Positions 16,902 through 32,815 of a stretch of DNA of 32,815 nucleotides are shown in pieces (within the stretch, counting starts at the first letter, position 1; each line of letters opens with the position of its first letter). Below the pieces are notes generated by a model, which was not told the DNA's origin, did no database searches, and saw nothing but the letters and a program-made list of their open reading frames with translations. The DNA is from Salinisphaera orenii subsp. halophila YIM 95161 (GTDB lineage Bacteria > Pseudomonadota > Gammaproteobacteria > Nevskiales > Salinisphaeraceae). The stretch spans positions 1 through 32,815 of the forward strand of contig NZ_AYKF01000089.1 in the NCBI RefSeq assembly GCF_003732545.1, in the 5' to 3' direction. A program made the position numbers and the translations under genes.

Positions 16902-18665
16902 ATGGCGCGCATTCCACAGCATTTCATCGATCAGCTGCTCGAGCGCACGGACATCGTGTCGCTGATCGACGCGCGCGTGTCGCTCAAGAAATCCGGGCAC
17001 GAATACGCCGCCTGCTGCCCGTTCCACGACGAAAAGACGCCGTCGTTCACGGTCTCGCCCACCAAGCAGTTCTATCACTGCTTCGGCTGCGGCGCCCACG
17101 GCACCGCGATCAGCTTCCTGATGGAATACGACCGGCTGGAGTTTCGGGACGCGGTCGAGGTGCTCGCCCAGCAGTCGGGGCTCGAGATCCCGGAGGAGGC
17201 CGCCACCGCGAACGAGTCCGGGCCCAGGCGCGAACCGCTGTTCGAGGTGATGGCGCTCGCCGACCGCCGCTATCGCAGCGCCCTGCGCGAGACGCCGGCC
17301 GCGATCGACTATCTCAAGCGCCGCGGCGTCTCCGGCGCGATGGCCAAGACCTATGGCCTGGGCTTCGCGCCCGACGCCTGGGACACGCTGGCCGGCGCCC
17401 TGCGGGACCGGGCCTCGGCGCATCGGGCGGGGCTGCTGATCGAACGCGACTCGGGCGGCTACTTCGACCGGTTCCGCAACCGGCTGATGTTTCCCATCCG
17501 GGATACGCGCGGGCGAACGGTCGCCTTCGGCGGGCGCACGCTCGGCGACGACAAGGCCAAGTACCTGAACTCGCCGGAGACGCCGCTGTTCCACAAATCC
17601 GATCACATGTACGGGCTGTTCGAGGCCCGCCAGGCGCTGCGCGACATCCCGCGGCTGCTCGTGGTCGAGGGCTATATGGACGTGATCGCGCTCGCCCAGC
17701 ACGGCTTTCCGAACGCCGTCGCCACGTTGGGCACGGCCACCACCCAATCGCATCTGACCACGCTGTTCCGGCATACATCCGAAGTGCTGTTCTGTTTCGA
17801 CGGCGACGCCGCCGGCGTCCGCGCCGCGCGCAAGGCCCTGGAACAGAGCCTGCCGGTGATGCGCGGCGCCCGGCGGGTGCGGTTTCTGTTCATGCCCGAG
17901 GAGGCGGACCCGGACACACTGGTACGCGGCGAGGACGGGCCGGCACGGTTCCAGCAGGCGATCGACGAGGCGCGACCCGCCTCGGCCGTCCTGCTCGACG
18001 CCCTGACCGACGACATCGACCTGAACACGCCGGACGGCCGGGCCCAGCTGGTGGAGGCCGCGCGCGGCTACGTCAACGCCCTGCCGCCGGAGGCATTCCG
18101 GGCCGAGCTGATCGCCGAGATCGCGCGCCTCGCCGGGCTGCCGGCCGAGGATCTGCGTCAGATGTATGCCAAGGCGCCTTCACGCGCGACGCCGACGGCC
18201 GATACAGATTCGCGTGGGCACGAAATACGTCTGACGCCGGTCAGCCGCGCCTTGTCGCTGCTGCTCAGCGACCCGAGCCTGGCCGGCCAGGTCGAGGACC
18301 TGGAGGCCGTACGCCAGAGCACGGCCCGCGGTGCGGCGATTCTTGTGGAGGCGATTGAGTTTTTCGCAAACAACCCAACAATCCCGGTATCGCACTGGCT
18401 GGAACGCCATCGCGACCAACGCTACTTCGAGAGACTGCAGCAGGTCGCGAGCGTCACGCCGCCGGGCAGCGAGGACGAACGGGCGCGCGAATTCGTGCAG
18501 ACCGTACGCCGGCTCGGCGAATACAGCGCCGGTCGACAATCGCTTCGCGAGCGTTACGACCGGCTGGTGGCACAACAGGCACGCGGCCCGCTCGACGCCG
18601 AGGCCGCGCGCGAACTCAAGGAGGTGCTTCGGCTATTGCAGAGAGCACGCGACGACACGGCCTGA
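16902..18665 (+). CDS. dnaG: DNA primase
   Basis: Synthesises the RNA primers for Okazaki fragments at the replication fork, working with the DnaB helicase. The 587-residue protein has the normal three-part layout. The N-terminal CHC2 zinc-binding domain has ligands C39, H42, C60 and C63 (CCPFHDEKTPSF and CFGCGAHG). The Toprim catalytic core has E256 in VVEGYMDVI and D300 and D302 in FDGDAAG. The C-terminal helical domain, from about residue 440, is the part that binds DnaB and is poorly conserved. The start at 16902 lies 57 bp after yqeY and no other start competes. rpoD follows 117 bp downstream, completing the classical primase-sigma pairing. Confidence 0.98.
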   Translation: MARIPQHFIDQLLERTDIVSLIDARVSLKKSGHEYAACCPFHDEKTPSFTVSPTKQFYHCFGCGAHGTAISFLMEYDRLEFRDAVEVLAQQSGLEIPEEAATANESGPRREPLFEVMALADRRYRSALRETPAAIDYLKRRGVSGAMAKTYGLGFAPDAWDTLAGALRDRASAHRAGLLIERDSGGYFDRFRNRLMFPIRDTRGRTVAFGGRTLGDDKAKYLNSPETPLFHKSDHMYGLFEARQALRDIPRLLVVEGYMDVIALAQHGFPNAVATLGTATTQSHLTTLFRHTSEVLFCFDGDAAGVRAARKALEQSLPVMRGARRVRFLFMPEEADPDTLVRGEDGPARFQQAIDEARPASAVLLDALTDDIDLNTPDGRAQLVEAARGYVNALPPEAFRAELIAEIARLAGLPAEDLRQMYAKAPSRATPTADTDSRGHEIRLTPVSRALSLLLSDPSLAGQVEDLEAVRQSTARGAAILVEAIEFFANNPTIPVSHWLERHRDQRYFERLQQVASVTPPGSEDERAREFVQTVRRLGEYSAGRQSLRERYDRLVAQQARGPLDAEAARELKEVLRLLQRARDDTA

Positions 18666-18718
18666 GTCCACAGCGGCCACGCAGCGACAACACCGCGGTC
18701 GCAGCGAAACGCCCTGAT

Positions 18719-18727
18719 TGATATACT
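18719..18727 (+). promoter_or_regulatory. Candidate extended -10 promoter for rpoD
   Basis: TGATATACT at 18719-18727 fits the extended -10 form TGnTATACT (5 of 6 matches in the hexamer), in the 117-bp gap between dnaG and rpoD, 55 bp before the start codon. No good -35 box is present, as is common for extended -10 promoters. A separate rpoD promoter in or near dnaG is known in E. coli; this one is a pattern match. Confidence 0.45.
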
Positions 18728-18782
18728 GGTCGGTTATCGCCGGACACGCTCAGCCCCTACGGACCCACACGCAGCAGATCAC

Positions 18783-20585
<1,803 letters not shown>

Positions 20586-20601
20586 GCGCAACACGCCGAA
20601 C

Positions 20602-20627
20602 GCTTGGCGGCCCCGCGGCCGCCAAGC
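20602..20627 (+). other. Strong hairpin just after rpoD
   Basis: GCTTGGCGGCC (20602-20612) and GGCCGCCAAGC (20617-20627) form a perfect 11-bp stem with a CCGC loop, 17 bp after the rpoD stop codon. No T run follows, so it is more likely a transcript-stabilising structure or the first part of a tandem terminator with the hairpin 11 bp further on. Confidence 0.6.
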
Positions 20628-20637
20628 TATAGTGCCG

Positions 20638-20666
20638 CGCCGGGCGGATCACACGCCCGGCGTTTT
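20638..20666 (+). terminator. Rho-independent terminator of the rpoD operon
   Basis: CGCCGGGCG (20638-20646) and CGCCCGGCG (20654-20662) form a perfect 9-bp stem with a 7-base loop, directly followed by TTTT. It lies between rpoD and the tRNA gene, with the tRNA starting 10 bp later. Confidence 0.85.
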
Positions 20667-20675
20667 CATGTCAGG

Positions 20676-20751
<76 letters not shown>

Positions 20752-20797
20752 TCAAATCAGCAAGTTACGAACACGCTTTGCGTCTCGACATGCCCAG

Positions 20798-20815
20798 AGG
20801 TACATTATAGGTACA
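20798..20815 (+). repeat. Short direct repeat AGGTACA in front of the integrase gene
   Basis: AGGTACA occurs at 20798-20804 and again at 20809-20815, one DNA turn apart (11-bp period), between the tRNA and the integrase start. The position suits arm-type binding sites of the recombinase near an attachment site or an autoregulatory operator, but two 7-base copies are little evidence. Confidence 0.35.
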
Positions 20816-20837
20816 CTTTCGGTGCAGCAGGCGTGCA

Positions 20838-21875
20838 ATGGCGACCCTCACTAAGACCGAAGCTGGCCGCTGGAAGGCCGTCATCCGACGCCAAGGCTGG
20901 CCGACCAGCTCAAAGACCTGGCGGACTAAACGCGACGCCGAGGATTGGGCACGGCGCACCGAAGACGAGATGGCACGCGGCATCTATCAGAACCGCGCCC
21001 CCGCCGAACGGATGACCCTGAGCGGAGCTATCGATCGCTACCTGAGCGACGTCACGCCCACCAAAAAAGAAAGCACCCAGAAAGCCGAGCAAGCCAAGGC
21101 ACGGAAGCTGCGTGCCGCTCTCGGCCAATACAGCCTCGTCGCAATAGCGCCCGATGTAGTCGCCGGCTACCGGGATGAACAGCTAGCCGACGGTAAATCC
21201 CGCGATACCGTCCGGCTGCAGCTCGCCCTGCTCTCTCATATCTTCGAGATCGCCATCAAAGAATGGCGCGTCGGTATCTGGGCCAATCCCTGTCGCGCTG
21301 TACGCACGCCTAAGCCCGGCAAAGCCAGGGATCGCAGATTGTCACACGATGAAGCTGAAAAGCTCCTCAGGGCGGCCGAGGGCCAGTCCAACCCGATGCT
21401 AGGCCTGATGATCCGTCTGGCATTGGCCACAGCCATGCGAGTTGGCGAGATTCAACGTCTACGCCGGCGCGACGTCGACCTGAAACGTCGCACCGCCCTG
21501 CTCCGCGACACAAAGAACAACCAGTCCCGCACCGTGCCGCTGTCCACCGAAGCCGCGCAAGTGCTTCGCGTCGCGCTAGATAGCCCCGTTCGGCCGATCG
21601 ATTGTGATCTGGCCTTCTTCGGCGAACCTGGGCGTGACGGTATTCGCAGAGGATTCCAATACGGGCCAGGCTGGAAGCGAGCGACACGAGACGCCGGCAT
21701 TACCGATCTACGCTTCCACGATCTACGACACGAAGCAGTCAGCCGCCTCGTCGAGTTGGGTCTAGGAGATCAGGAAGTCGCAGCAATAAGCGGCCACAAA
21801 AGCATGCAGATGCTACGGCGGTATACGCATCTAAGGGCCGAGGATTTAGTGCGGCGGCTGGATGCTCTTGGATGA
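20838..21875 (+). CDS. Tyrosine recombinase (phage/island-type integrase)
   Basis: Catalyses site-specific insertion and excision of the genomic island. The 345-residue protein has a short N-terminal arm-binding part (about 1-50), a core-binding SAM-like domain (about 55-150) and the catalytic domain. All catalytic residues are present: R201 (AMRVGEI), K226 in the beta-hairpin, H294 and R297 (HDLRHEA), H320 (SGHKS) and the nucleophile Y329 (RRYTHL). The enzyme is therefore probably active. ATG 20838 lies 86 bp after the tRNA 3' end and transcription runs away from the tRNA, the normal layout for elements integrated in tRNA genes. No excisionase gene is visible nearby. Confidence 0.93.
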   Translation: MATLTKTEAGRWKAVIRRQGWPTSSKTWRTKRDAEDWARRTEDEMARGIYQNRAPAERMTLSGAIDRYLSDVTPTKKESTQKAEQAKARKLRAALGQYSLVAIAPDVVAGYRDEQLADGKSRDTVRLQLALLSHIFEIAIKEWRVGIWANPCRAVRTPKPGKARDRRLSHDEAEKLLRAAEGQSNPMLGLMIRLALATAMRVGEIQRLRRRDVDLKRRTALLRDTKNNQSRTVPLSTEAAQVLRVALDSPVRPIDCDLAFFGEPGRDGIRRGFQYGPGWKRATRDAGITDLRFHDLRHEAVSRLVELGLGDQEVAAISGHKSMQMLRRYTHLRAEDLVRRLDALG

Positions 21876-21969
21876 CAATTACCCGATCAGGGCACTCAGT
21901 AATACCTATTCGTGCAAGAAGACATCACAGCCAATGCCTGACGCGGAATAACAAGACAGCTGAGCTGCC

Positions 21970-24912
21970 ATGAAAAATACGATTACCGCATACCACGCCA
22001 AGTATTACGCCCACGAACTCACAGCCAGAAACTCCCTGGAAGGCGTCGATCGCCTATCACAGTCTCTATTTGATGCGAGCGTAGATCTAAACCCCCATCA
22101 AATCGAAGCCGCCCTCTTCTCATTGCGAAACCCATTACAGCAAGGGGTATTGCTTGCTGATGAAGTCGGACTAGGCAAGACCATCGAAGCAGCGTTGGTC
22201 ATATGCCAGCTATGGGCCGAGCGCCGCCGTAAGCTGCTCGTGATCGCACCAGCCAGCCTACGAAAGCAATGGGCGCAGGAGCTTCTGGAAAAATTTGCTG
22301 TGCCCGGCACGGTCCTGGACACAATCGCCCTGCGCAAGCAATCGGCCGGTAGCGAACAAGAGACCTTGCAGCGCCTGGCAGGCAAATCAGTGATCATCGT
22401 CTCCTACCAGTTTGCAGCGCGACTGGAGGCCGAGCTTCGCAGCATCCCTTGGGATCTTGTCGTCATTGATGAAGCGCACAAGCTGCGCAACGCTCATCGC
22501 AAGAGCAACCGCACCGGACAGGCGCTCCGCAGAGCATTGGAAGGCCGTAAAAAACTATTGCTGACCGCAACACCGCTCCAGAACTCACTCATGGAGTTGT
22601 ACGGGCTTTCGACTCTGATCGACGAACACCTGTTCGGCGACGAAAAAGCTTTTCGCAAGCAATACATCAACAATCCTGACGGGCTCCAAGAGCTACGCGG
22701 GAGACTGGCAGGCTTTACCCAGCGCACGCTGCGCAAGGACGTACTGGAGTATATCCAGTACACCGAGCGCAGAGCACTCACTCAGCCGTTCAACCCCACC
22801 GACGCCGAGCAAGCGATCTACGAGCGGGTGTCCGCTTTTTTGCTGCGCGAAGAATCTTTCGCATTGCCCAAGCGCCAACGTCATCTGACGGGCCTGATTC
22901 TTCGCAAGCTGCTTGCCTCGAGCGCCCCGGCTATTGTCGGCACTCTATTAACCATCCAAGCACGCTTAGAGCAGCTACTGGCGGATGACACGGTTGCCGA
23001 GGACGTGAACCTGCTTGAGCAATGGATAGCAGAAGACGACCTTGAAACTGACTATCTCGAAGAGCTGGAACTGGCCGAAAACGGTGACGCCAAAGAACCC
23101 AGCCAAAATGCGCTAACCGCAAGTCATAAGGCACCGCTCAGCCCCCAACAAAAAAAGCGAGCGATCTGCGAGGAAGTCGATGAGCTGAATAGCATCATCG
23201 CACTGGCCCAGAGCCTCCAGACCGACACCAAGGCGCAATCCTTGCTCACGGCATTGCAGCTCGGCTTTGCCAACATGGCCAATCTAGGCGCGCCTCGTAA
23301 GACGATCATCTTTACCGAATCCAAGCGTACTCAACACTATCTGTACGAATTTCTGGCTGCCAACGGTTATGACGGCCAGCTGGCAATGTTCAGCGGCACC
23401 AACAATCACCCAGACACCACCGCCATTTATCAGCAATGGCGGACCGAACACCACGGTACAGACCGGGCAACCGGATCCCCCCAGGTTGATCGGCGCACGG
23501 CCCTGATCGACCACTTTCGCAAAGACGACGGCACGGGCGCCGACATCATGATCGCCACCGAAGCCGCCGCGGAAGGCATCAACCTGCAATTTTGTGCGCT
23601 GTTGATCAACTACGACCTGCCCTGGAACCCCCAGCGCGTTGAACAACGTATCGGCCGCTGCCACCGCTACGGGCAACGCTTCGACGTGGTGGTGATCAAC
23701 TTCCTCAACACACGCAACCAAGCCGATCAGCGCGTACTGGAGCTACTGTCGGAAAAGCTGCATCTATTCTCTGGCGTTTTCGGGGCCTCGGATGAAGTCC
23801 TGGGGCGCATTGAGAGTGGCATCGACTTTGAAAAGCGCATCCTCTCTATTTACGAAACCTGCCGACACCCCGACGACATAGAACAGGCATTCAACGCCCT
23901 TCAGGCCGACCTGGAAGACGCGATCAATGATCGAATAAAGGACACGCAAAGCCAGTTGCTGGAAAACTTCGACGAAGAAGTCCACGACCGGCTCAAGTTG
24001 CGGCTGGATGAAGCCGAAGCACGCCTCGATAAACTGGGCCGCTGGTTCTGGGGCGTCACACGCTACGCATTGGACGAACAAGCACGCTTCGACGACGCCT
24101 CATACGCCTTTGGCCTCCAGCAATCACCGCCAGGTATTAGCCCACCCGTCGCTCCGGGCCGCTATCAACTCATTCGTGGCGCGGCCCAGCCCGACATGCT
24201 CGCCCACGCGTACCGGCTAAGCCACCCACTGGGCGAATGGGCGGTGGAAACTGGCTTGGGGGTCTCGACACCCACCGCATTCATTACCTTCGATTACAGT
24301 GCCCACGCCAGCAAAATCAGCGTAGTTGAGAGCCTCGGGGGTCAATCCGGCTGGTTACGCCTGGATCGCCTCCAGGTCACCGCATTTGAGACCACTGATA
24401 CCCTGCTATTTTCTGGACTTACTGATGCTGGCCGGACACTAGATCAGGATGTTTGTGAAAAACTGATGGCCATAGGGGCCCAAGGTCGACCCAAACCATC
24501 GAAAGGCACACCCCCAGCTCAGCTGATCGCGGACAGCGAACGACACGTCGCCGCGGCCATCGCCCAGATTCTCGAAGCCAACCATCGCTTGTTCAACGAA
24601 GAACGCGACAAGCTCGAGAAATGGGCAGACGACAAACTACTGGCCGCCGAAGAAGCACTGAAGAACACCAAGGCACGGATTACTCAGCTCAAGCGTGATG
24701 CGCGTAAAGCCGCCACGCTGCAGGAGCAGTCAGATATACAGCGGGAAACGGCCGCACTCGAAAAGCAGAAACGCCGTCAGCGGCAAGACATCTTTGCCGT
24801 GGAAGACGAAATCATCGAGCAGCGCGACCAACTGATCGATTCCCTTCAGCGACGCCTGCACGAAAAAACCGAGACCGACACCCTATTCACCCTGCGCTGG
24901 CAGGTTGTATGA
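21970..24912 (+). CDS. SNF2/HepA-type DEAH-box helicase or translocase of a putative defence operon
   Basis: A 980-residue superfamily 2 ATPase, first gene of the four-gene cassette. The ATPase core has a Q-like motif (LNPHQIEAAL), Walker A with K70 in DEVGLGKT, the Walker B box D167-E-A-H170, TATPLQNS (motif III), motif V around TEAAAEGINLQ and motif VI QRIGRCHRYGQ (559-569). This is the Swi2/Snf2 pattern of enzymes that translocate on double-stranded DNA. An acidic insertion (about 335-410) separates the RecA lobes. The C-terminal 330 residues have no recognised domain and end in a charged, probably coiled-coil stretch (about 865-965). DISARM DrmD and RapA/HepA are the closest families I know. 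It lies 94 bp after the integrase; the methyltransferase follows after 45 bp. No convincing promoter is visible in front of it. Confidence 0.9.
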   Translation: MKNTITAYHAKYYAHELTARNSLEGVDRLSQSLFDASVDLNPHQIEAALFSLRNPLQQGVLLADEVGLGKTIEAALVICQLWAERRRKLLVIAPASLRKQWAQELLEKFAVPGTVLDTIALRKQSAGSEQETLQRLAGKSVIIVSYQFAARLEAELRSIPWDLVVIDEAHKLRNAHRKSNRTGQALRRALEGRKKLLLTATPLQNSLMELYGLSTLIDEHLFGDEKAFRKQYINNPDGLQELRGRLAGFTQRTLRKDVLEYIQYTERRALTQPFNPTDAEQAIYERVSAFLLREESFALPKRQRHLTGLILRKLLASSAPAIVGTLLTIQARLEQLLADDTVAEDVNLLEQWIAEDDLETDYLEELELAENGDAKEPSQNALTASHKAPLSPQQKKRAICEEVDELNSIIALAQSLQTDTKAQSLLTALQLGFANMANLGAPRKTIIFTESKRTQHYLYEFLAANGYDGQLAMFSGTNNHPDTTAIYQQWRTEHHGTDRATGSPQVDRRTALIDHFRKDDGTGADIMIATEAAAEGINLQFCALLINYDLPWNPQRVEQRIGRCHRYGQRFDVVVINFLNTRNQADQRVLELLSEKLHLFSGVFGASDEVLGRIESGIDFEKRILSIYETCRHPDDIEQAFNALQADLEDAINDRIKDTQSQLLENFDEEVHDRLKLRLDEAEARLDKLGRWFWGVTRYALDEQARFDDASYAFGLQQSPPGISPPVAPGRYQLIRGAAQPDMLAHAYRLSHPLGEWAVETGLGVSTPTAFITFDYSAHASKISVVESLGGQSGWLRLDRLQVTAFETTDTLLFSGLTDAGRTLDQDVCEKLMAIGAQGRPKPSKGTPPAQLIADSERHVAAAIAQILEANHRLFNEERDKLEKWADDKLLAAEEALKNTKARITQLKRDARKAATLQEQSDIQRETAALEKQKRRQRQDIFAVEDEIIEQRDQLIDSLQRRLHEKTETDTLFTLRWQVV

Positions 24913-24957
24913 CACCCACGCAAATAACGCAGCCGAACGATCTACAAGGTTTGAATC

Positions 24958-27900
24958 ATGAGCGCAGCACAAAACGCTAAATTTCAGGAACTCGTCGCCA
25001 AGCTGCGTGAGATTTTCCAGATCGACCGTCCCGAGCTGGACTTCGGCATCTACCGCATCCTCAATGCACGAGCCGACGAGATCAATGAGTACCTGGAACA
25101 GCGCCTGCCTGAAAAAGTAGAAGCAGCACTGAACAGCGGCAGCGAAGCCCAGCGTGAACAGGTGGCCCGCGAGCTGAAAGAAAAGGAAGAACAATACGCC
25201 GCCGATGGACTGGACCCGAACAACGTGCCCAAAGTGCTGGAGCTGCGTGAGAAGCTAGCCGATTACGGCACAGGCGCTTCAAAGCACGAAAACGCCGTGT
25301 ACTCACACTTGCTGACTTTTTTCTCGCGCTATTACGATAAGGGTGACTTCATCAGTCAGCGTCGCTACAAGGGCGACACCTACGCTATCCCCTACGCTGG
25401 GGAAGAAGTCATGCTCCACTGGGCCAACAAGGACCAGTACTACACGAAAAGCGGCGAAAATTTCGCGAACTACAGTTTCAATCTGGACGATGGCCGCACC
25501 GTGCACTTTCGCTTAGTCGCGGCGGACACCGCTAAGGACAACCGCAAAGACAACGACAAGGAACGCCGTTTCGCCCTGGTTGAACCAAAGACGCTGGCTC
25601 GCACTGACGAACATGGCGACGAATACGAAGAGGATTTGATCCCGGTTGAAGAAGTAAACGGAGCTAATGGAAAAGACCTAATCATCCGCTTCGAGTATGC
25701 GCCCCAGCCCAAGGGCACGAAGCAGGAAGCGTTGGTCAGCCAGGGCGTGGATGCAGTATTAGCCGACCAACAAGTTAAATCCCACTGGCCGGACCTAGCC
25801 AAACGCGCACCCACAGAGGATAAACCGCATCGCACCTTGCTGGAAAAATATCTGACGGACTACACGACTAAGAATACAGCTGACTACTTTATCCACAAGG
25901 ATCTTGGAGGCTTCCTAGGCCGAGAGCTGGACTTTTATATCAAAAACGAAGTCATGCACTTGGACGATGTCCAGAACGCCGGCGCCTTTTCCGACATCGA
26001 AAAGAACCTTCGCATGATCCAATGCTTAAGATCGATTGCGTTAGAGCTAATCGACTTTCTCGCGCAACTGGAAAATTTCCAGAAAAGGCTTTGGTTGAAA
26101 AAGAAATTTGTAGTGTCCAGCCATTACTGCATCACGTTAGACCGAGTGCCGGAGGAGCTTTACCCCGAGATCGTTGCGAACGAGCTGCAGTGGGAGCAGT
26201 GGAAGCGGCTCAAAGTTTGTGGCGCCGAAACTCCTACAACGGTCGAGGCGATGAAGTCCGGGCTTTCTAAGATGGTAGATACCAGTCTATTCGGAAGCGA
26301 TTTCAAATATAAGCTTCTCGCGAGCATCGACGATATCGATACCACTTTGGACGGAGTAGTAGTACACAGCGATAATTTTCAAGCGCTGAATTTATTCAAA
26401 GAACGTTATAAGGCACGCATCGACTTCACGTACATAGATCCTCCGTATAACACTGTCCACTCAAAGATCGCCTACAAAAATCAGTTTGAGCACTCCAGCT
26501 GGCTAGCTCTGATCTCGAACACAATTCCGCTCGCGCGGCAATTATTCGGAGACTTGTACTCATTCGGATTCGCGATAGATGATTACGAGTTCGGCAATGC
26601 ACTTGCGTGCTTACGCGATCATTTTTCTGATTCTGATGTGTCAACTATCGTCGTCAATCATCACCCGCAAGGCTCCGGGGGGCGGCTCTCCCGAACTCAT
26701 GAATACTACATCGTCGCATCGCCAGCTAATGGCCCCTCGCACTTGGGGTTTCCCAAAAAAGACGAGATTGAAGAACGCAGTTTTATGCGCAGCGGGACTG
26801 CGGACAACAATTATCGCGCGCCCCGTGGTGGAGGGGTTGGTCGTTGGCGCAGCTTTTATGCGCTGTTAGTTGACCCTGGTACGCGAAAGGTCGTAGGAAC
26901 AGAGCCACCTCCTCCTCTTGATACGGAGTATCCAACGGGGAGAACACCAGAAGGATTGGAGCGGATTTATCCGATCAACTCGAGTGGTGAAGAACGTGTC
27001 TGGCGCTCATCCCGCGAGACGGGCAAAGAACGTGTAGAGAACGGCGAAATATTTCTAACTGATCGAGGAGCTATCAAGCAGATAATCGATCATCGAGACA
27101 AGCGTGAAACACTTTTCAGCAACTGGATTGGAGCGGACTACAACGCCGGCACTAACGGAACTGCGATCTTGGACAACCTAGGGCTCGGTGATGTGTTCGA
27201 CTATCCAAAGTCTGTGAAAACACTTGAACAAGCTTTTTGGATGCAGTCTTTTGGAAAAAGCAACTTCACAGTGCTCGATTACTTTGCCGGCTCAGGGACG
27301 ACTGGTCACGCTACACTTTCTTTGAACCGAAAAGATGGAATGGATCGGAAGTATGTGCTCGTCGAGCAAGGAGAATACTTCGACACTGCGCTCAAACCAA
27401 GACTACAGAAGATTGTTTTCTCCGCTGAATGGGCTAGCGGCGAGCCAACCACCCCAGAAACTGGAATCTCTCACTGCTTCAAGATCCTAGAACTGGAAAG
27501 CTACGAAGACACCCTGAACAACCTGCAGCTGCGGCGTGACGCCAAGCAGCATCAGACTCTCGGACTGCTGGACCAACAAGCAAAAGATGACTACCGGCTG
27601 CATTACATGCTGAATGTTGAAAGCCAGGGTTCGCTGCTGTCGGTCGAAGATTTCAAAAAACCCTTCGATTACGGCATGAATATCGCTACAGATTCCGCCG
27701 GAGCCTGTGAACCTACCCAGGTCGACTTGGTGGAGACGTTCAATTATCTGGTCGGCCTGCGAGTCAAACAAATTGAGGCCCAGCCAGACCGAGGCTTTGT
27801 GACCGTGACGGGCACATTGCCCAGTGACGAAAGCTGCTTGGTGCTTTGGCGCGACTGCGAACTATTGGATTACGAAGGCGTTAGCGGCCTGTGCGAAAAG

Positions 27901-28074
27901 CTTGCTATTAACCCCTCTGATAACGAGTTCGACGTGGTCTATATCAACGGCGACCACAATATCCCCACCAAGCTGACTCAGACGGCCGAGAATGGCGGCG
28001 CAACCCGTGAGCTCAAGCTGCGCCAGATCGAGCCCGAGTTCCTGGAACGCATGTTCTCTGTGGAGGATCTGTAA
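24958..28074 (+). CDS. Site-specific DNA adenine methyltransferase (beta-class, type III Mod-like)
   Basis: A 1038-residue methyltransferase, expected to protect host DNA by N6-adenine methylation using S-adenosylmethionine. The catalytic motif IV DPPY is at 494-497 (DFTYIDPPYN) and the SAM-binding motif I FAGSGTT at 776-782, in the order IV-target domain-I, which defines the beta class to which type III Mod proteins belong. It is much longer than a type III Mod: about 480 residues precede DPPY, including charged helical segments, and about 250 follow motif I. An AAGG ribosome-binding site precedes ATG 24958. Bases from about 26000 to 27480, covering both motifs and the target-recognition part, are poorer in GC than either end, suggesting exchange. 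The stop codon overlaps the RhuM start as TAATG. The target sequence is unknown. Confidence 0.92.
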   Translation: MSAAQNAKFQELVAKLREIFQIDRPELDFGIYRILNARADEINEYLEQRLPEKVEAALNSGSEAQREQVARELKEKEEQYAADGLDPNNVPKVLELREKLADYGTGASKHENAVYSHLLTFFSRYYDKGDFISQRRYKGDTYAIPYAGEEVMLHWANKDQYYTKSGENFANYSFNLDDGRTVHFRLVAADTAKDNRKDNDKERRFALVEPKTLARTDEHGDEYEEDLIPVEEVNGANGKDLIIRFEYAPQPKGTKQEALVSQGVDAVLADQQVKSHWPDLAKRAPTEDKPHRTLLEKYLTDYTTKNTADYFIHKDLGGFLGRELDFYIKNEVMHLDDVQNAGAFSDIEKNLRMIQCLRSIALELIDFLAQLENFQKRLWLKKKFVVSSHYCITLDRVPEELYPEIVANELQWEQWKRLKVCGAETPTTVEAMKSGLSKMVDTSLFGSDFKYKLLASIDDIDTTLDGVVVHSDNFQALNLFKERYKARIDFTYIDPPYNTVHSKIAYKNQFEHSSWLALISNTIPLARQLFGDLYSFGFAIDDYEFGNALACLRDHFSDSDVSTIVVNHHPQGSGGRLSRTHEYYIVASPANGPSHLGFPKKDEIEERSFMRSGTADNNYRAPRGGGVGRWRSFYALLVDPGTRKVVGTEPPPPLDTEYPTGRTPEGLERIYPINSSGEERVWRSSRETGKERVENGEIFLTDRGAIKQIIDHRDKRETLFSNWIGADYNAGTNGTAILDNLGLGDVFDYPKSVKTLEQAFWMQSFGKSNFTVLDYFAGSGTTGHATLSLNRKDGMDRKYVLVEQGEYFDTALKPRLQKIVFSAEWASGEPTTPETGISHCFKILELESYEDTLNNLQLRRDAKQHQTLGLLDQQAKDDYRLHYMLNVESQGSLLSVEDFKKPFDYGMNIATDSAGACEPTQVDLVETFNYLVGLRVKQIEAQPDRGFVTVTGTLPSDESCLVLWRDCELLDYEGVSGLCEKLAINPSDNEFDVVYINGDHNIPTKLTQTAENGGATRELKLRQIEPEFLERMFSVEDL

Positions 28075-29186
28075 TGGCAGACCGTGGGGAAGCATCGCCG
28101 CCGGAACCTGACATGGCCGGCGAGCTGGTGATTTATTCGGATAAGGATGGCCGCCTACGCGTTGAGGCCCGCCTTCATGACGAAAGCCTCTGGCTAACCC
28201 AGAAGCAGATGGCTGAGCTGTTTGGCGTCGATGTGCGCACTATCAGCGAACACCTGAAAAACACGTTCCAGGACAATGAACTAGACGAGGCATCAGTTAT
28301 CCGGAAATTCCGGATAACTGCCACCGACGGCAAGCGCTACCTGACCGGCTTTTACCATCTGGACGCCATCATATCCGTGGGCTATCGGGTGAATTCGGTA
28401 CGCGCCACCCAGTTTCGTCAATGGGCCACGCAAGTGCTGCGTGAATACATCGTCAAGGGCTTTGCCATGGACGATGAGCGCCTGAAGAACCCGCCTGTGG
28501 CGGGCTCCGCCGTGCCAGATTACTTCGACGAGATGCTCGATCGAATTCGCGACATTCGTGCCAGCGAACGGCGGATGTACCTACGGGTGCGCGAGATATT
28601 CGCGCTGGCGGCGGATTATCAGCCATCGCTGAGGGAAACCACGCGCTTCTTCCAAACCATTCAGAACAAGCTGCACTTTGCCGTTACCGGCATGACGGCA
28701 CCGGAGATCATCACCAGCCGCATCAATCACCTGTTGCCCCACGCCGGGCTCACGAGTTGGACGCACGAGGACGTGCGCAAACAGGATGTCACGGTGGCCA
28801 AGAACTACCTGAATGAAGATGAAGTTCGCGAGCTGAACCGCATCATCACCATGTGGCTGGACTTTGCCGAAGATCAGGCCGAGCGTCGCACGCAGGTCTT
28901 CATGGCGGACTGGAAGCAGAAGCTGGACGATTTTCTGCGCTTCAACGACCGCCAGGTTCTGCCTGACGCAGGTAAACGCTCCCGCAAACAAGCCGACGCT
29001 ATCGCCCACGCCGAGTTCGAGAAGTTCGCTGCCCTTCGTCGCGAAGAGAAAGAAACGCTGGGGGCCATCGAGAATATTCGAGAACTAGAGTCTGCTGCTC
29101 GACAGCTCGAAACAAAGCCCGGAAAGCGCAATGTCCGATCGACCAAGGCCAGCAAGAAGAACAGGACGAATGGGGATTCGGAGTGA
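28074..29186 (+). CDS. RhuM-family protein (virulence RhuM, function unknown)
   Basis: A 370-residue protein of the RhuM family, named after a gene in Salmonella pathogenicity island 3; its biochemical role is unknown. The N-terminal part holds LWLTQKQMAELFGVDVRTIS (39-58), which looks like a helix-turn-helix, then SVIRKFRITATDGK (74-87) and YHLDAIISVGYRVNS (94-108), the family hallmarks. The C-terminal end is charged and basic. A strong GGAGG lies seven bases before ATG 28074, which overlaps the methyltransferase stop (TAATG), and its own stop overlaps the next gene (GTGA), so it is made as part of the restriction cassette. Its place between the Mod-like and Res-like genes suggests a partner or regulator role, not shown. 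A perfect palindrome lies inside the gene. Confidence 0.9.
   Translation: MADRGEASPPEPDMAGELVIYSDKDGRLRVEARLHDESLWLTQKQMAELFGVDVRTISEHLKNTFQDNELDEASVIRKFRITATDGKRYLTGFYHLDAIISVGYRVNSVRATQFRQWATQVLREYIVKGFAMDDERLKNPPVAGSAVPDYFDEMLDRIRDIRASERRMYLRVREIFALAADYQPSLRETTRFFQTIQNKLHFAVTGMTAPEIITSRINHLLPHAGLTSWTHEDVRKQDVTVAKNYLNEDEVRELNRIITMWLDFAEDQAERRTQVFMADWKQKLDDFLRFNDRQVLPDAGKRSRKQADAIAHAEFEKFAALRREEKETLGAIENIRELESAARQLETKPGKRNVRSTKASKKNRTNGDSE
28294..28320 (+). repeat. Perfect 27-bp palindrome inside the RhuM gene
   Basis: CAGTTATCCGGAA (28294-28306) and its exact reverse complement TTCCGGATAACTG (28308-28320) flank one central A. As RNA it would fold to an 11-bp stem with an AAATT loop. It covers codons 74-82 (SVIRKFRIT), a conserved family stretch, and uses the ATA isoleucine codon, uncommon in this genome's core genes. 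Could be an operator, an RNA processing site or chance. Confidence 0.8.
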
Positions 29187-32100
29187 GTAAGAAGACGCCC
29201 AAACGCAGCTTCCACCAGGAACTCGTCCTCAACCGCTGGATGCTGAGGTTTTTCAACACCGACAAGCTGGCGAGCTTGAAACAACGCTTGGGTGAAGACC
29301 GGCACGAGGGCATCGACGACGACGGGCAGAGCAAGTTTTTCTACGAGCTGATGCACGGGCTGTTTAACCCCAACCTGGTAGCCGAAGCAGACCTGCGCCG
29401 CTATGACCTGAGCATTGTTCGTCACTGGCAAGCTATCACCGCCGAGCGCAATAAGCTGGAAGGCCACGAGTTGCAGATGAAGTACTTCCAGTACTTGTCG
29501 TTGCTGTTCACCGAGATTTATCTGGACTGGTATTTCAACAAGCGCCAGGCCTTGCTCGACGGCTTGAATGAGGAGATGGCTCGCTACCGGGAAGAACAAG
29601 GCGCTGAACCTTTCCGGGCTTTTTTATCCGAGGATCTGAACAAGGTCGCGTTCTGGAACGCCACCGGCAGCGGCAAGACGCTGCTGCTGCACGTGAATAT
29701 CAAACAGTATTTGCACTATTTTCAGACCGAGCACTCGAACAGCTATCCGGACAAGATCATTCTGCTGACCCCGAACGAAGGGTTGTCGCGGCAGCATCTG
29801 GACGAGTTGAAGCGGTCGAGAATTACGGCCCAGGCCTTTAACAAAAACCAAACAATGCGCTTCCCTGGCACGGTCGATGTGATCGACATCAACAAGCTGG
29901 GCGATGCCACGGGCGACAAAACAGTTGCCGTCGAAGCGTTCGAAGGCAATAACCTGGTCCTGGTGGACGAAGGTCACCGTGGCACGGGCAAAGATGCCAT
30001 GGCTTGGATGCGTCGCCGGAGCGCGCTGGTTCAGGGTGGCTTCGCCTTTGAGTATTCAGCCACTTTCGGGCAGGCCGTAGCCAAAGGCTATACCGTAGAA
30101 ACGGCTGAGCAGGAGATCCAGAAAAAACGCGCCAAGATGCTATTCGGCACTACGAGCTTCAAGAAGCTGGACGAAGACGAATTGGCACAGCTGACACTGA
30201 CCGGCGAGGAAAAGCGCCTCGCCCGTGTCACGGCCACCCGCGAGATCTACGCCAAGTGCATTCTTTTCGATTACTCGTACAAGTTCTTCTACGAAGACGG
30301 CTATGGCAAAGAGTCGCTGATTCTCAACATGAAAGAAGAGGCCTACGAGCAGGCTGATAATGCAGCCAAATATTTCACCGGCTGCCTGCTGGCCTTCTAT
30401 CAGCAGCTTTGGTTGTGGAGCACCCACCGAGAAAAGCTAAGCGAATTCAATCTAGAAAAGCCGCTGTGGGTGTTCGTGGGCAACACGGTGGCCGGCGAAG
30501 ACTCGGATGTCTTGGTAGTGCTCCGCTTCTTAGCAAACTTTCTCAACGACGACGCCAGAATCAAGACTTGGCTCGCCGATCTAATCGCTGATCGAGCTCT
30601 GATCCTGGATGTCAACGACAATAACATTTTCAAAGGCCGCTTTACGCCTTTAATGAGCTTTGTCGGCAAAGTCGATGCCCTCTATACCGACATCCTGCAG
30701 CGCGTGTTCAATGCGCCTGCCCGACAGCGGCTAAAGCTGGTCAATATCAGGACAAGCAAAGGCGAGTTGGCGCTACGCGTTGGCGATGCCGAACCCTTCG
30801 GGCTCATCAACATCGGCGATGACAGCAAGTTTTTCAGCCTGGCGGAGAACATAGAAGCGTTCGACAGCGAACGCGACGATTTTGGCGGCGCCCTTTTTGG
30901 AACGCTGAACAATAAAGACAGCCAGCTCAACGTGCTGATTGGTTCTCGCAAATTTACCGAAGGATGGAGCAGCTGGCGCGTCTCTACCATGGGCTTGTTG
31001 AACATGGGCCAAGGCGAAGGCTCGCAGATTATTCAGCTGTTTGGCCGCGGCGTGCGCCTGAAAGGCCAGAGCTTTTCGCTCAAGCGCACAACGCCACAAG
31101 AGCGGCCCAAGGGCGTCCACCTGGAAAAGTTGGAAACGCTCAATGTCTTTGGGGTGCGCGCTAGCTATATGGCCGCTTTCAAGGATTACCTGCGCGAAGA
31201 AGGGATCACACCTAGCGACGAAGTGTGGGAGCTGGACTTTAAAACGCGGGCCAACCTCCCTGCCAGCAAACTCAAGACGCTGACGCTGAAAGATGGTTAT
31301 AAGGACAATCAGAAACAGGGGTTCAAGCGCACGCACTTTCCCTGGCTGTACGAGATCCCCGCCGAGTTCGAGGACAAGATCAAACCGCCTCACGTGGCGC
31401 TGGACCTCTATCCTCGGGTAGAGGCGCTTAGCACCGAACGCAGCAAAACCAAGGGCAAAAGCGGCCACGCAACGCCAGAAGCCCGAAACAAAGGCAAGCT
31501 GGATACGCAGCTCTTTTCGCTATTCGATTGGGACCGCATTTATTTGGCGCTGCAGGAGTACAAGATCCAACGTAGCTGGAGCAATCTACGCCTCGACCGG
31601 CAGAAGCTGATCGGTTTTTGCTCCGGCTCCACCGACTGGTACACCCTCTTCATCCCGGCGGCTGAGTTGGATGTCCGTAGCTTCGGCGACATTCGAAAGC
31701 AAGAAGATATCCTGATTCGACTGCTGATCGACTATACCGATCGGTTTTACAACGCCCTGAAGAAAGGCTATGAAGGCCAATTTTACGATATTGCTCATAT
31801 CGATGAAGATCACGGATCGATGCTCAAGCTGTACCAGTTTGAGGTCGACAACACCGACGACGGGCTGGAGTACCTGAAAAATCTGGAACTACTCAAGCAG
31901 CTGGTAGCGGACCGCAAGATAGGCGAGGCAAGCCAATGGAATGCGCCGCACATGGTGACAATTAGCTTCGACAGCCATCTTTACTACCCACTACTGGCTC
32001 TAGAAGATAAAGATGCTGTTCCTCTGAGAATGCGGCCGTTGGCTTTCGACGCACCCAGCGAGTGGGAATTTGTGCGCGACCTGGAAGCTTTCTACAAGTC

Positions 32101-32536
32101 TCCCGAAGGCAAAGCGGCCATTGGCGGTCGAAGCCTTTACCTACTGCGCAATGCCGATAACGAGAAAAAAGGCCTTGGCTTCGCTTTGGCTGGCAACTTT
32201 TATCCAGACTTCCTGCTGTGGCTGGTGGACGACGATACGGGTCAGCAGTGGCTGACGTTTGTGGATCCCAAGGGGCTTCGCAACCTGGATCTTTCGCATC
32301 CCAAGCTCGGGCTTTATAAAGAAGTGAAAACGCTCGAGGCAGCACTAGCCAGCCAGGCCAAGCCGGGAGACTCGGCGTTGATATTGAACGCTTTCGTGCT
32401 GTCGCCGACAAAGTTTGCTGATCTACTCAATGTCGGCGACTCCGCTCAGAAAACGGACCTGGAAGACCGGCATGTGCTGTTCATGCAAGACGGCAGGAGC
32501 AGCTATTTAGGGAAGATGCTCAACAGAATCGGCTAA
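29183..32536 (+). CDS. Type III Res-like DEAD/DEAH helicase with C-terminal PD-(D/E)xK nuclease
   Basis: A 1117-residue superfamily 2 helicase resembling the Res subunit of type III restriction enzymes, probably the DNA-cutting effector of the cassette. Walker A has K165 in NATGSGKT, and the Walker B box is D262-E-G-H265 (LVDEGHRGTG), a variant of DEAH. Motif VI is QLFGRGVR (618-625). Near the C terminus D1009 in YPDFLLWL and D1028-P-K1030 in FVDPKG form the PD-(D/E)xK pattern expected of an active nuclease. The N-terminal 130 residues (HQELVLNRWMLRFFNTDKL onward) are specific to this subfamily. The start is GTG 29183, overlapping the RhuM stop as GTGA, so translation is coupled. Type III Res proteins are usually somewhat shorter (about 900-1000 residues). 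Confidence 0.9.
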   Translation: MSKKTPKRSFHQELVLNRWMLRFFNTDKLASLKQRLGEDRHEGIDDDGQSKFFYELMHGLFNPNLVAEADLRRYDLSIVRHWQAITAERNKLEGHELQMKYFQYLSLLFTEIYLDWYFNKRQALLDGLNEEMARYREEQGAEPFRAFLSEDLNKVAFWNATGSGKTLLLHVNIKQYLHYFQTEHSNSYPDKIILLTPNEGLSRQHLDELKRSRITAQAFNKNQTMRFPGTVDVIDINKLGDATGDKTVAVEAFEGNNLVLVDEGHRGTGKDAMAWMRRRSALVQGGFAFEYSATFGQAVAKGYTVETAEQEIQKKRAKMLFGTTSFKKLDEDELAQLTLTGEEKRLARVTATREIYAKCILFDYSYKFFYEDGYGKESLILNMKEEAYEQADNAAKYFTGCLLAFYQQLWLWSTHREKLSEFNLEKPLWVFVGNTVAGEDSDVLVVLRFLANFLNDDARIKTWLADLIADRALILDVNDNNIFKGRFTPLMSFVGKVDALYTDILQRVFNAPARQRLKLVNIRTSKGELALRVGDAEPFGLINIGDDSKFFSLAENIEAFDSERDDFGGALFGTLNNKDSQLNVLIGSRKFTEGWSSWRVSTMGLLNMGQGEGSQIIQLFGRGVRLKGQSFSLKRTTPQERPKGVHLEKLETLNVFGVRASYMAAFKDYLREEGITPSDEVWELDFKTRANLPASKLKTLTLKDGYKDNQKQGFKRTHFPWLYEIPAEFEDKIKPPHVALDLYPRVEALSTERSKTKGKSGHATPEARNKGKLDTQLFSLFDWDRIYLALQEYKIQRSWSNLRLDRQKLIGFCSGSTDWYTLFIPAAELDVRSFGDIRKQEDILIRLLIDYTDRFYNALKKGYEGQFYDIAHIDEDHGSMLKLYQFEVDNTDDGLEYLKNLELLKQLVADRKIGEASQWNAPHMVTISFDSHLYYPLLALEDKDAVPLRMRPLAFDAPSEWEFVRDLEAFYKSPEGKAAIGGRSLYLLRNADNEKKGLGFALAGNFYPDFLLWLVDDDTGQQWLTFVDPKGLRNLDLSHPKLGLYKEVKTLEAALASQAKPGDSALILNAFVLSPTKFADLLNVGDSAQKTDLEDRHVLFMQDGRSSYLGKMLNRIG

Positions 32537-32556
32537 GCGGTCACACGCGGACCGCT
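32536..32556 (+). terminator. Hairpin after the cassette, possible weak terminator
   Basis: AGCGGTC (32536-32542) and GACCGCT (32550-32556) form a 7-bp stem with a 7-base loop, beginning at the last base of the stop codon of the Res-like gene. No T run follows (ATCTCC), so termination would be weak or Rho-assisted. Confidence 0.4.
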
Positions 32557-32815
32557 ATCTCCTAGAAGGGAATGGCGGTCCTGTGGCCGCGCCTGCTGTT
32601 CAACCCCAGCCAACTCACCATTGGCATGCATAAGACTTTATTATGCAGCCACATATCGCACGCTATATCCGTATCCGCGGGCTGACATGAGCTGCACACG
32701 GCCGTAACTGTAAGCCCTTCTTCATCGGCTTTGCTCTGAGCTGTGGAGCTACGCTCATTTCTGGTGTATGAGCGATTGAAGGAGGCGGCACCCACCTGCT
32801 GAAATTAGTAAGACC
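32557..32815. other. Unassigned right edge of the window
   Basis: About 260 bp with no gene I can support. A minus-strand frame of 77 codons (32562-32795, GTG start) is open but matches nothing I know and may be chance or the remnant of a gene. A small inverted repeat, GCATAA (32628-32633) and TTATGC (32641-32646) around seven bases, is present. No copy of the tRNA 3' end occurs here, so the island continues past the window. Confidence 0.4.

What the first reader, a model, noticed from the sequence alone, without database searches (positions are those of the whole stretch)
21970..32536. Four-gene SNF2 - methyltransferase - RhuM - Res cassette as an undescribed hybrid defence system
Four co-directional genes, the last three overlapping, combine a Snf2-type motor, a very large beta-class adenine methyltransferase, a RhuM protein and a type III Res-like helicase-nuclease. 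The parts are known from type III restriction-modification (Mod and Res) and, for a Snf2 helicase beside a methyltransferase, from DISARM, but DrmA/DrmB/DrmC-type proteins are absent and I know no named system with this set. Inferred model: methylation marks self, the Snf2 motor senses or moves on DNA, Res cuts, and RhuM regulates or bridges. It sits on an integrase-bearing island at a tRNA, a usual place for defence genes.
Basis: partly seen in the sequence, partly recalled or inferred. Interest (0 to 1): 0.85.

Follow-up and report, generated by a model that had tools for sequence, protein, structure and literature searches.

The report
Type III restriction locus with SNF2 helicase
This is a mobile bacterial restriction-modification locus of the type III kind that carries an extra SNF2 motor as a recurring partner and a RhuM gene as an exchangeable passenger; it is a variant of a known defence rather than a new four-part system.

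Summary
The four genes exist as described, but they are not a four-gene system. Mod and Res match type III restriction-modification models full length. A RapA-like SNF2 ATPase is a recurring, not constant, partner: in 67 of 77 near Mod relatives with room to see it and beside Mod in 5 of 9 Mod-Res genomes of a class sample, absent in 3, unjudgeable in 1. Its 81-row tree separates long-Mod from ordinary short type III contexts. RhuM is a passenger: 6 of 80 loci, in a slot that 24 further loci fill with other genes. In one pair RhuM is 80% identical while Mod and Res are about 36%. PADLOC lists RhuM as candidate PDC-S05, and RhuM in RM loci was reported in 2013 (PMC3710099). The cassette lies on an element at tRNA-Met, 99.98% identical in two hosts whose nearby DNA is 90% identical. 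DISARM membership fails. I saw no print description of the SNF2-type III link in capped search listings. SNF2's function is inferred.

The parts
20676..20751 (+). tRNA-Met (CAT), presumed attachment site; left border of the shared element
   Evidence: identity with L003 begins at 20676; identity with G370 ends at 20751
20838..21875 (+). tyrosine integrase
   Evidence: Phage_integrase 1.8e-32
21970..24912 (+). SNF2: RapA-like SWI2/SNF2 ATPase, recurring partner
   Evidence: SNF2-rel_dom; DrmD models partial and below NCBI cut-off; model pLDDT 80.1, first four fold matches are RapA
22159..22182 (+). SNF2 Walker A DEVGLGKT
   Evidence: 76 of 77 rows, one gap
24958..28074 (+). Mod: type III methyltransferase with long N-terminal extension
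   Evidence: MTase_III PDLC03646 over 7-1036 of 1038, 1384 bits; 3 solved type III-like Mod chains matched, best 1e-18
26437..26454 (+). Mod motif IV DPPYNT
   Evidence: D, P, P, N in 82 of 82 rows; Y in 81, F in 1; T in 72
26455..27282 (+). Mod target-recognition region (hypervariable, between motifs IV and I)
27283..27303 (+). Mod motif I FAGSGTT
28074..29186 (+). RhuM: embedded passenger gene (PADLOC candidate PDC-S05)
   Evidence: Virulence_RhuM 2.6e-108; PDC-S05 509 bits; 6 of 80 loci
29183..32536 (+). Res: type III restriction subunit, SF2 motor plus C-terminal PD-(D/E)XK-like motif
   Evidence: REase_III PDLC03654 over 6-1113 of 1117, 1574 bits
29660..29680 (+). Res Walker A ATGSGKT
   Evidence: GSGKT in 76 of 76 rows
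32204..32272 (+). Res nuclease-like motif PD...DPK
   Evidence: PD in 76 of 76; D 72, E 4; final K in 71, H in 5

Best explanation
A type III restriction-modification locus with an added RapA-like SNF2 motor and an embedded second-line gene (RhuM), carried on an integrative element at tRNA-Met. Steps: (1) Mod reads a short DNA site through its exchangeable target-recognition region and methylates adenine in host DNA [recognition region shown by sequence variation; chemistry inferred from family]. (2) On unmodified DNA, Mod-Res uses ATP to slide and cuts when complexes meet [inferred from EcoP15I; Res motor and nuclease motifs shown]. (3) SNF2 acts as a dsDNA-tracking ATPase in restriction, most likely clearing RNA polymerase or other proteins from DNA or helping Mod-Res move or meet; no nuclease domain was found in it [recurring association and RapA-like architecture shown; role inferred]. 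It helps but is not indispensable, since Mod-Res pairs occur without it. (4) RhuM is a separate defence unit, most likely a toxin-like back-up acting when restriction fails, using the RM operon for expression and mobility [exchange shown; toxin role is a published proposal]. The placing (type III RM variant, SNF2 partner, RhuM passenger) I put at about 0.8; the SNF2 mechanism alone at about 0.3.
For: Mod and Res each match one type III model end to end. In 369 genomes of the class, Mod and Res (E <= 1e-50) occur in the same 9. SNF2 in 67 of 77 Mod loci with room (upstream of Mod in 62, downstream in 5); all three genes in 57 of 66 with room on both sides. Of 22 genomes of the sample with this SNF2, 18 show type III Mod and/or Res on the same stretch, 5 long and 13 short type. 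SNF2 tree: 70 long-Mod rows lie on one side of one supported branch, shuffled mean 10.5 changes. Distances over 53 loci: SNF2-Res r=0.77, Res-rest of Mod 0.95, recognition region 0.19-0.21 with each. RhuM in 6 of 80; its 5 rows on the Res tree need 4 changes, shuffled mean 4.9. L108 against L030: RhuM 80%, SNF2 51%, Mod 37%, Res 36%. Two E. coli copies read are SNF2-Mod-Res without RhuM. Mobility.
Against: SNF2 is not constant: of 9 Mod-Res genomes in the class sample, 5 have it beside Mod, 3 have none, and 1 cannot be judged; 10 of 77 near relatives lack it at the threshold used, one of them with a 229-bit remnant. A Priestia plasmid has an unrelated helicase and a haloarchaeal plasmid an AAA ATPase upstream of Mod. 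So SNF2 could itself be a long-lived passenger. Slot contents taken together are weakly clustered on the tree (24 changes, shuffled mean 27.3, as low in 0 of 200), HEC-01 identities follow Res identities in several pairs, and in L003 and L007 RhuM has diverged along with SNF2 and Res (85% against 82-83%), so exchange is not free. The fold match to RapA superposes loosely (TM 0.36-0.47, rmsd 13.6-17.5). No experiment was done.
Confidence: 0.8

Rival explanations
1. SNF2 is only a passenger like RhuM, i.e. a plain two-gene type III RM with neighbours.
For: Mod-Res without SNF2 in 3 of 9 class genomes, a fourth not judgeable, and in 10 of 77 near relatives. In 5 SNF2-less loci one neighbour each was scanned: three are ordinary genes (transporter, TPP enzyme, mfd-like), two have no Pfam match.
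Against: SNF2 lies upstream of Mod in 62 of the 67 loci that have it, splits by Mod type on its tree, correlates with Res distances at r=0.77, and 18 of 22 sampled genomes with this SNF2 family have type III genes on the same stretch. Slot genes turn over more.
Confidence: 0.2
2. One reading: an undescribed four-gene hybrid defence system in which RhuM regulates or bridges.
For: Overlapping, co-directional genes; the window's system and relative L007 share all four, with similar divergence of SNF2, RhuM and Res.
Against: RhuM in 6 of 80 loci, other genes in the same slot in 24 further loci; lateral exchange of RhuM.
Confidence: 0.05
3. A DISARM relative: SNF2 (DrmD-like) plus methyltransferase.
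For: P0001's best PADLOC match is DrmD, 643 bits.
Against: The match covers 25-657 of 872 and NCBI's DrmD_b model scores 644 against a cut-off of 950; no MZB match in the genome; Mod hits MTase_III models, no DrmM model.
Confidence: 0.03

Closest known systems
Type III restriction-modification (EcoP15I type)
   Same: Mod with motif IV then I and a variable region between them; Res with SF2 motor and C-terminal PD-(D/E)XK-like motif; both match PADLOC type III models full length
   Different: Mod is 1038 aa with 493 residues before motif IV; an SNF2 gene precedes Mod; EcoP15I is described as Mod and Res subunits only (PMC4490356, passages)
DISARM class 1 (DrmD with an adenine methyltransferase; class make-up recalled)
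   Same: SNF2 ATPase of a related family next to a methyltransferase
   Different: no MZB match in the genome, DrmD score under cut-off, type III Res present
Hma / DUF499 BREX-related systems
   Same: SNF2 helicase plus methyltransferase; slot proteins of relatives hit HEC-01, HEC-03 and HEC-06 models (that HEC means Hma-embedded candidate is recalled)
   Different: no HmaB or HmaC among the matches of Mod and Res; HmaB is reported as m5C methyltransferase, HmaC as ATPase (PMC8565338, passages)
Embedded defence genes in RM loci
   Same: RhuM between RM genes, as reported for RM loci in PMC3710099 (passages); PADLOC candidate PDC-S05; Payne et al. 2024 preprint seen only as a citation
   Different: the host here is an SNF2-type III locus, whose slot contents were tabulated here
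ARMADA (PMC12458937, passages)
   Same: Swi2/Snf2-type helicase plus methyltransferase on elements at tRNA genes
   Different: has a YprA-like helicase and PglX-like methyltransferase; no such match among the four proteins (PADLOC's 2023 set predates ARMADA)

Membership tests
Type III RM | Mod of the type III methyltransferase family | tested here: met
   PDLC03646, residues 7-1036, 1384 bits
Type III RM | Res with SF2 motor and PD-(D/E)XK nuclease beside Mod | tested here: met
   PDLC03654 1574 bits; motor motifs in 76 of 76 rows, PD in 76, K in 71; nuclease by motif only
Type III RM | recognition region of Mod between motifs IV and I, varying independently | tested here: met
   10-50% identity at residues 450-800 against mostly above 60% outside, for L003 with L007, L009, L050; r 0.19-0.21 with the other parts
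Type III RM | adenine methylation of an asymmetric site; cutting needs two inverted sites and ATP | not testable with these tools
   no methylome or biochemistry here
DISARM | DrmB-type protein (MZB/DUF1998 domain, recalled) in the locus | tested here: not met
   no PF09369 match in the window's genome; 1 of 8 relatives' genomes has one, its place relative to the system not checked; DNA beyond the contig end unseen
DISARM | DrmD over NCBI cut-off | tested here: not met
   643.8 bits against 950
Hma | HmaB methyltransferase and HmaC ATPase | tested here: not met
   no such model among the matches to P0002 and P0004
Embedded phage-defence candidate PDC-S05 (RhuM) | RhuM-family protein in PADLOC's PDC-S05 set | tested here: met
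   PDLC04852, 12-348 of 370, 509 bits
Embedded phage-defence candidate PDC-S05 (RhuM) | anti-phage activity | not tested
   needs plating assays
tRNA-integrated element | integrase next to tRNA; element shared between hosts with divergent flanks | tested here: met
tRNA-integrated element | direct repeat of the tRNA end at the far border | tested here: inconclusive
   25-mer found once in the genome, at the tRNA itself; contig ends at 32815

The most novel reading that the evidence does not exclude
This RapA-like SNF2 family is a true third subunit of a large subtype of type III restriction systems, shared by two Mod/Res lineages (long and short Mod), making them two-motor enzymes in which SNF2 clears or drives the DNA for Res; a component overlooked because Mod-Res enzymes have been studied as two-subunit machines.
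Probability: 0.35. Interest if true: 0.65.

Novelty: new variant of a known kind. Interest (0 to 1): 0.4.

Why it matters
If SNF2 is needed for restriction, many loci now annotated as plain type III RM are three-part enzymes, and searches that count only Mod and Res miss a component. The contrast between a co-inherited SNF2 and an exchangeable slot also gives a simple sequence test for telling core genes from embedded passengers in defence operons.

Tried and rejected
DISARM and Hma membership were tested and not met. A RhuM structure was predicted but is too weak to use (mean pLDDT 59.7); one fold search with it failed because the library was absent and no other was run. The far attachment repeat was sought and not found. 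A unit of four genes was rejected. A recurrent replacement for SNF2 was looked for at one neighbour in each of 5 SNF2-less loci and not found. A sequence match of RhuM to a lectin chain (23 residues) was set aside as chance.

Print: ten paper searches were made, seven with SNF2 among the terms. Listings show at most 20 rows, and some searches had far more hits (1,271). None of the listed titles, nor the passages I read in 15 papers, describes SNF2 as partner of type III RM; SNF2 helicases in other RM-type operons are on record (PMC2292703; PMC3710099). Three papers of the last listing could not be opened, and bioRxiv preprints are not held as such, so an existing description is not excluded.
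Full report
1. What is there. The window is one whole contig (32,815 bases) of a 3.79 Mb, 153-contig assembly. Up to about 20585 it is high-G+C DNA (0.69); then come tRNA-Met (20676-20751), a tyrosine integrase (20838-21875) and four co-directional genes of G+C 0.52-0.57: SNF2 (980 aa), Mod (1038 aa), RhuM (370 aa) and Res (1117 aa), with spacings of +45, -1 and -4 bases. Key motifs are intact: SNF2 DEVGLGKT, DEAH and QRIGRCHRYGQ; Mod DPPYNT (494) then FAGSGTT (776), the order of beta-class enzymes (class order recalled); Res ATGSGKT, DEGH, and PD...DPK near the C terminus. Pfam reports no nuclease domain in Res, so the nuclease rests on the motif and on the full-length REase_III model.

2. 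Mobility. Against L003 (record titled Endozoicomonas sp. G2_2) the stretch 20676-32746 is 99.975% identical over 12,072 columns, while DNA at 19498-20584 is 90.3% identical; identity starts at the first base of the tRNA. In L003 about 4.6 kb of other sequence lies between that flank and the tRNA. G370, 99% identical to the window over 18306-20751, stops matching at 20751, the last base of the tRNA. Of 14 genomes of the genus searched, 2 carry Mod in full, the window's own and G377, whose coordinates fit the L003 record; two others show only short weak matches. So an element was inserted at tRNA-Met and moved recently. The far border was not found: the tRNA-end 25-mer occurs once in the genome, and both contigs end soon after the cassette.

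3. Mod and Res are type III RM. PADLOC's MTase_III PDLC03646 and REase_III PDLC03654 match them end to end with 1384 and 1574 bits. Mod also matches three solved Mod-type chains including EcoP15I Mod; Res matches no solved chain by sequence, and NCBIfam has no model for either. In 369 genomes of the class, Mod and Res (E <= 1e-50) occur in the same 9 genomes. The region between Mod motifs IV and I behaves as a target-recognition domain: at residues 450-800, L003 against L007, L009 and L050 shows 10-50% identity, while windows outside are 44-98%, mostly above 60; yet L003 against L004 and L005 stays at 62-88% there. Over 53 loci its distances correlate at only 0.19-0.21 with those of SNF2, Res or the rest of Mod, while Res and the rest of Mod correlate at 0.95. 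Specificity thus seems to change in Mod without changing SNF2 or Res.

4. RhuM is a passenger. A scan gave 453 relatives of Mod, of which the best 80 were returned. RhuM is present in 6 of these 80, one being the near-identical L003 and one (L044) a truncated copy. By blastp clusters, and family scans of ten representative proteins only, the Mod-Res slot holds YhcG/DUF1016 in 11 loci, AAA plus DUF4276 (HEC-01A/B models) in 8 (in L010 only the DUF4276 frame was picked), other AAA proteins in 3 (two of them in near-identical records), an AlbA/Schlafen-like protein in 1 and Abi_2 in 1: 24 loci besides the 6. Fourteen loci have a gap of more than 250 bases between SNF2 and Mod; Abi_2, GmrSD (HEC-06) and HEC-03 are among its contents. 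On the Res tree of 76 rows, HEC-01 (6 rows) needs 6 changes against a shuffled mean of 5.9, YhcG (9 rows) 7 against 8.7, RhuM (5 rows) 4 against 4.9; all labels together need 24 against 27.3, as low in 0 of 200 shuffles, so there is weak clustering. Changes may be gains or losses; HEC-01 identities follow Res identities in several pairs, which suits an old gain with repeated loss. For RhuM the exchange is direct: L108 and L030 share RhuM at 80% while SNF2, Mod and Res are 51, 37 and 36%; L003 and L030 show the reverse, RhuM 48% with Res 72%. L003 and L007, by contrast, have RhuM, SNF2 and Res at 85, 82 and 83%. RhuM also appears beside an ordinary short type III Mod in L099. This does not look like a regulator or bridge of this system.

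5. SNF2 is a recurring partner, though not a constant one. Among the 80 loci it is present in 67 of 77 with at least 3 kb upstream of Mod or with SNF2 seen; Res in 73 of 74; all three in 57 of 66 with room on both sides. It is upstream of Mod in 62 of the 67 and downstream in 5. This sample is biased to near relatives of Mod. In the 369-genome sample SNF2 sits with Mod in 5 of the 9 Mod-Res genomes (G000, G140, G192, G240, G356; in G140 and G240 a Res stretch lies on another contig); G097, G202 and G217 have none in the stretches read; in G046 the contig ends just upstream of Mod, so it cannot be judged, and its SNF2 lies beside a short-type system elsewhere. Conversely, 22 of 369 genomes have this SNF2 family, and 18 of 22 show a type III Mod and/or Res on the same stretch (5 long, 13 short type; three of the stretches gave the short-type queries themselves). 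The four others are G110, G254, G077 and G163; in G077 and G163 the gene runs off the contig. On the SNF2 tree of 81 rows, the 70 long-Mod rows lie on one side of a supported branch (1 change, shuffled mean 10.5, as low in 0 of 500), the other side holding 10 short-type rows and 1 of unknown context; it is a FastTree tree with some long branches, and partial SNF2s were left out. SNF2-Res distances correlate at r = 0.77, highest of 200 permutations 0.149; shared descent of hosts was not removed. A Hymenobacter plasmid has SNF2 at 51%; a Priestia plasmid has an unrelated helicase in that place, and a haloarchaeal plasmid an AAA ATPase.

6. What SNF2 looks like. The predicted structure (mean pLDDT 80.1, pTM 0.70) has RapA as its first four fold matches, aligned over about 1,075 columns (E 6e-26 to 2e-22) but superposed loosely (TM 0.36-0.47, rmsd 13.6-17.5). 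Pfam finds no nuclease domain in it. The RapA entry title describes a protein that recycles RNA polymerase. I infer a dsDNA-tracking ATPase that removes or pushes proteins.

7. Spread. 253 of 5426 E. coli genomes have a DNA match to the SNF2-Mod query, none covering 80% of it; the two read in detail are SNF2-Mod-Res without RhuM, one beside tRNA-Leu and one on a plasmid. An Aeromonas plasmid copy has AAA and DUF4276 in the slot. Among plasmids 25 of 378 matching records cover at least 80% of Mod. Of the phage records one, Thermus phage phiLo, has a Res relative.

8. Comparison with print (passages only, no paper read whole). EcoP15I is described as Mod and Res subunits (PMC4490356). A 2013 analysis placed RhuM in RM loci, often fused to DOC, and proposed a toxin role in layered defence (PMC3710099). 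Embedding between RM genes is described for DarTG2 in a type I system (PMC12255303), citing the Payne et al. 2024 preprint, which I did not read. SNF2 helicases in other RM-type operons are on record (PMC2292703; PMC3710099). A term search of a type III review found no SNF2 (PMC3874151). I saw no description of SNF2 as partner of type III RM in the seven searches with SNF2 among the terms, whose listings are capped; three papers could not be opened.

9. Verdict. A type III restriction-modification variant with a co-inherited RapA-like SNF2 motor and an embedded, exchangeable RhuM, on a tRNA-Met element. New variant of a known kind; the four-gene hybrid reading is not supported.

Noticed in passing
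L098, L100-L104, L144, L145, L147: The same SNF2 family stands near ordinary short type III Mod and Res (PDLC03636 and PDLC03648 in the L102 and L104 proteins scanned). Proteins between include an LmuB-like SMC ATPase (L102), AIPR/AbiU (L101) and IetA (L098).
   Followed up: partly
L099:2460-10678: SNF2, GmrSD, short type III Mod and RhuM in a row; no Res relative detected on the stretch held.
   Followed up: no
L137:6013-8958: In a Priestia plasmid an annotated ATP-dependent DNA helicase without significant similarity to SNF2 takes its place before Mod-Res.
   Followed up: partly
Res residue 1030 (window 32270-32272): The nuclease lysine is H in 5 of 76 relatives; these Res copies may be altered.
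   Followed up: no
L003: Record titled Endozoicomonas sp. G2_2, but its contig coordinates fit G377, which the genome set places in the window's own genus; the name may be wrong.
   Followed up: partly
L003:1088-5717: About 4.6 kb of other genes lie between the flank shared with the window and tRNA-Met.
   Followed up: no
MH673673.1 18072-20477: Thermus phage phiLo encodes a Res relative at 38% identity over 77% of the query.
   Followed up: no
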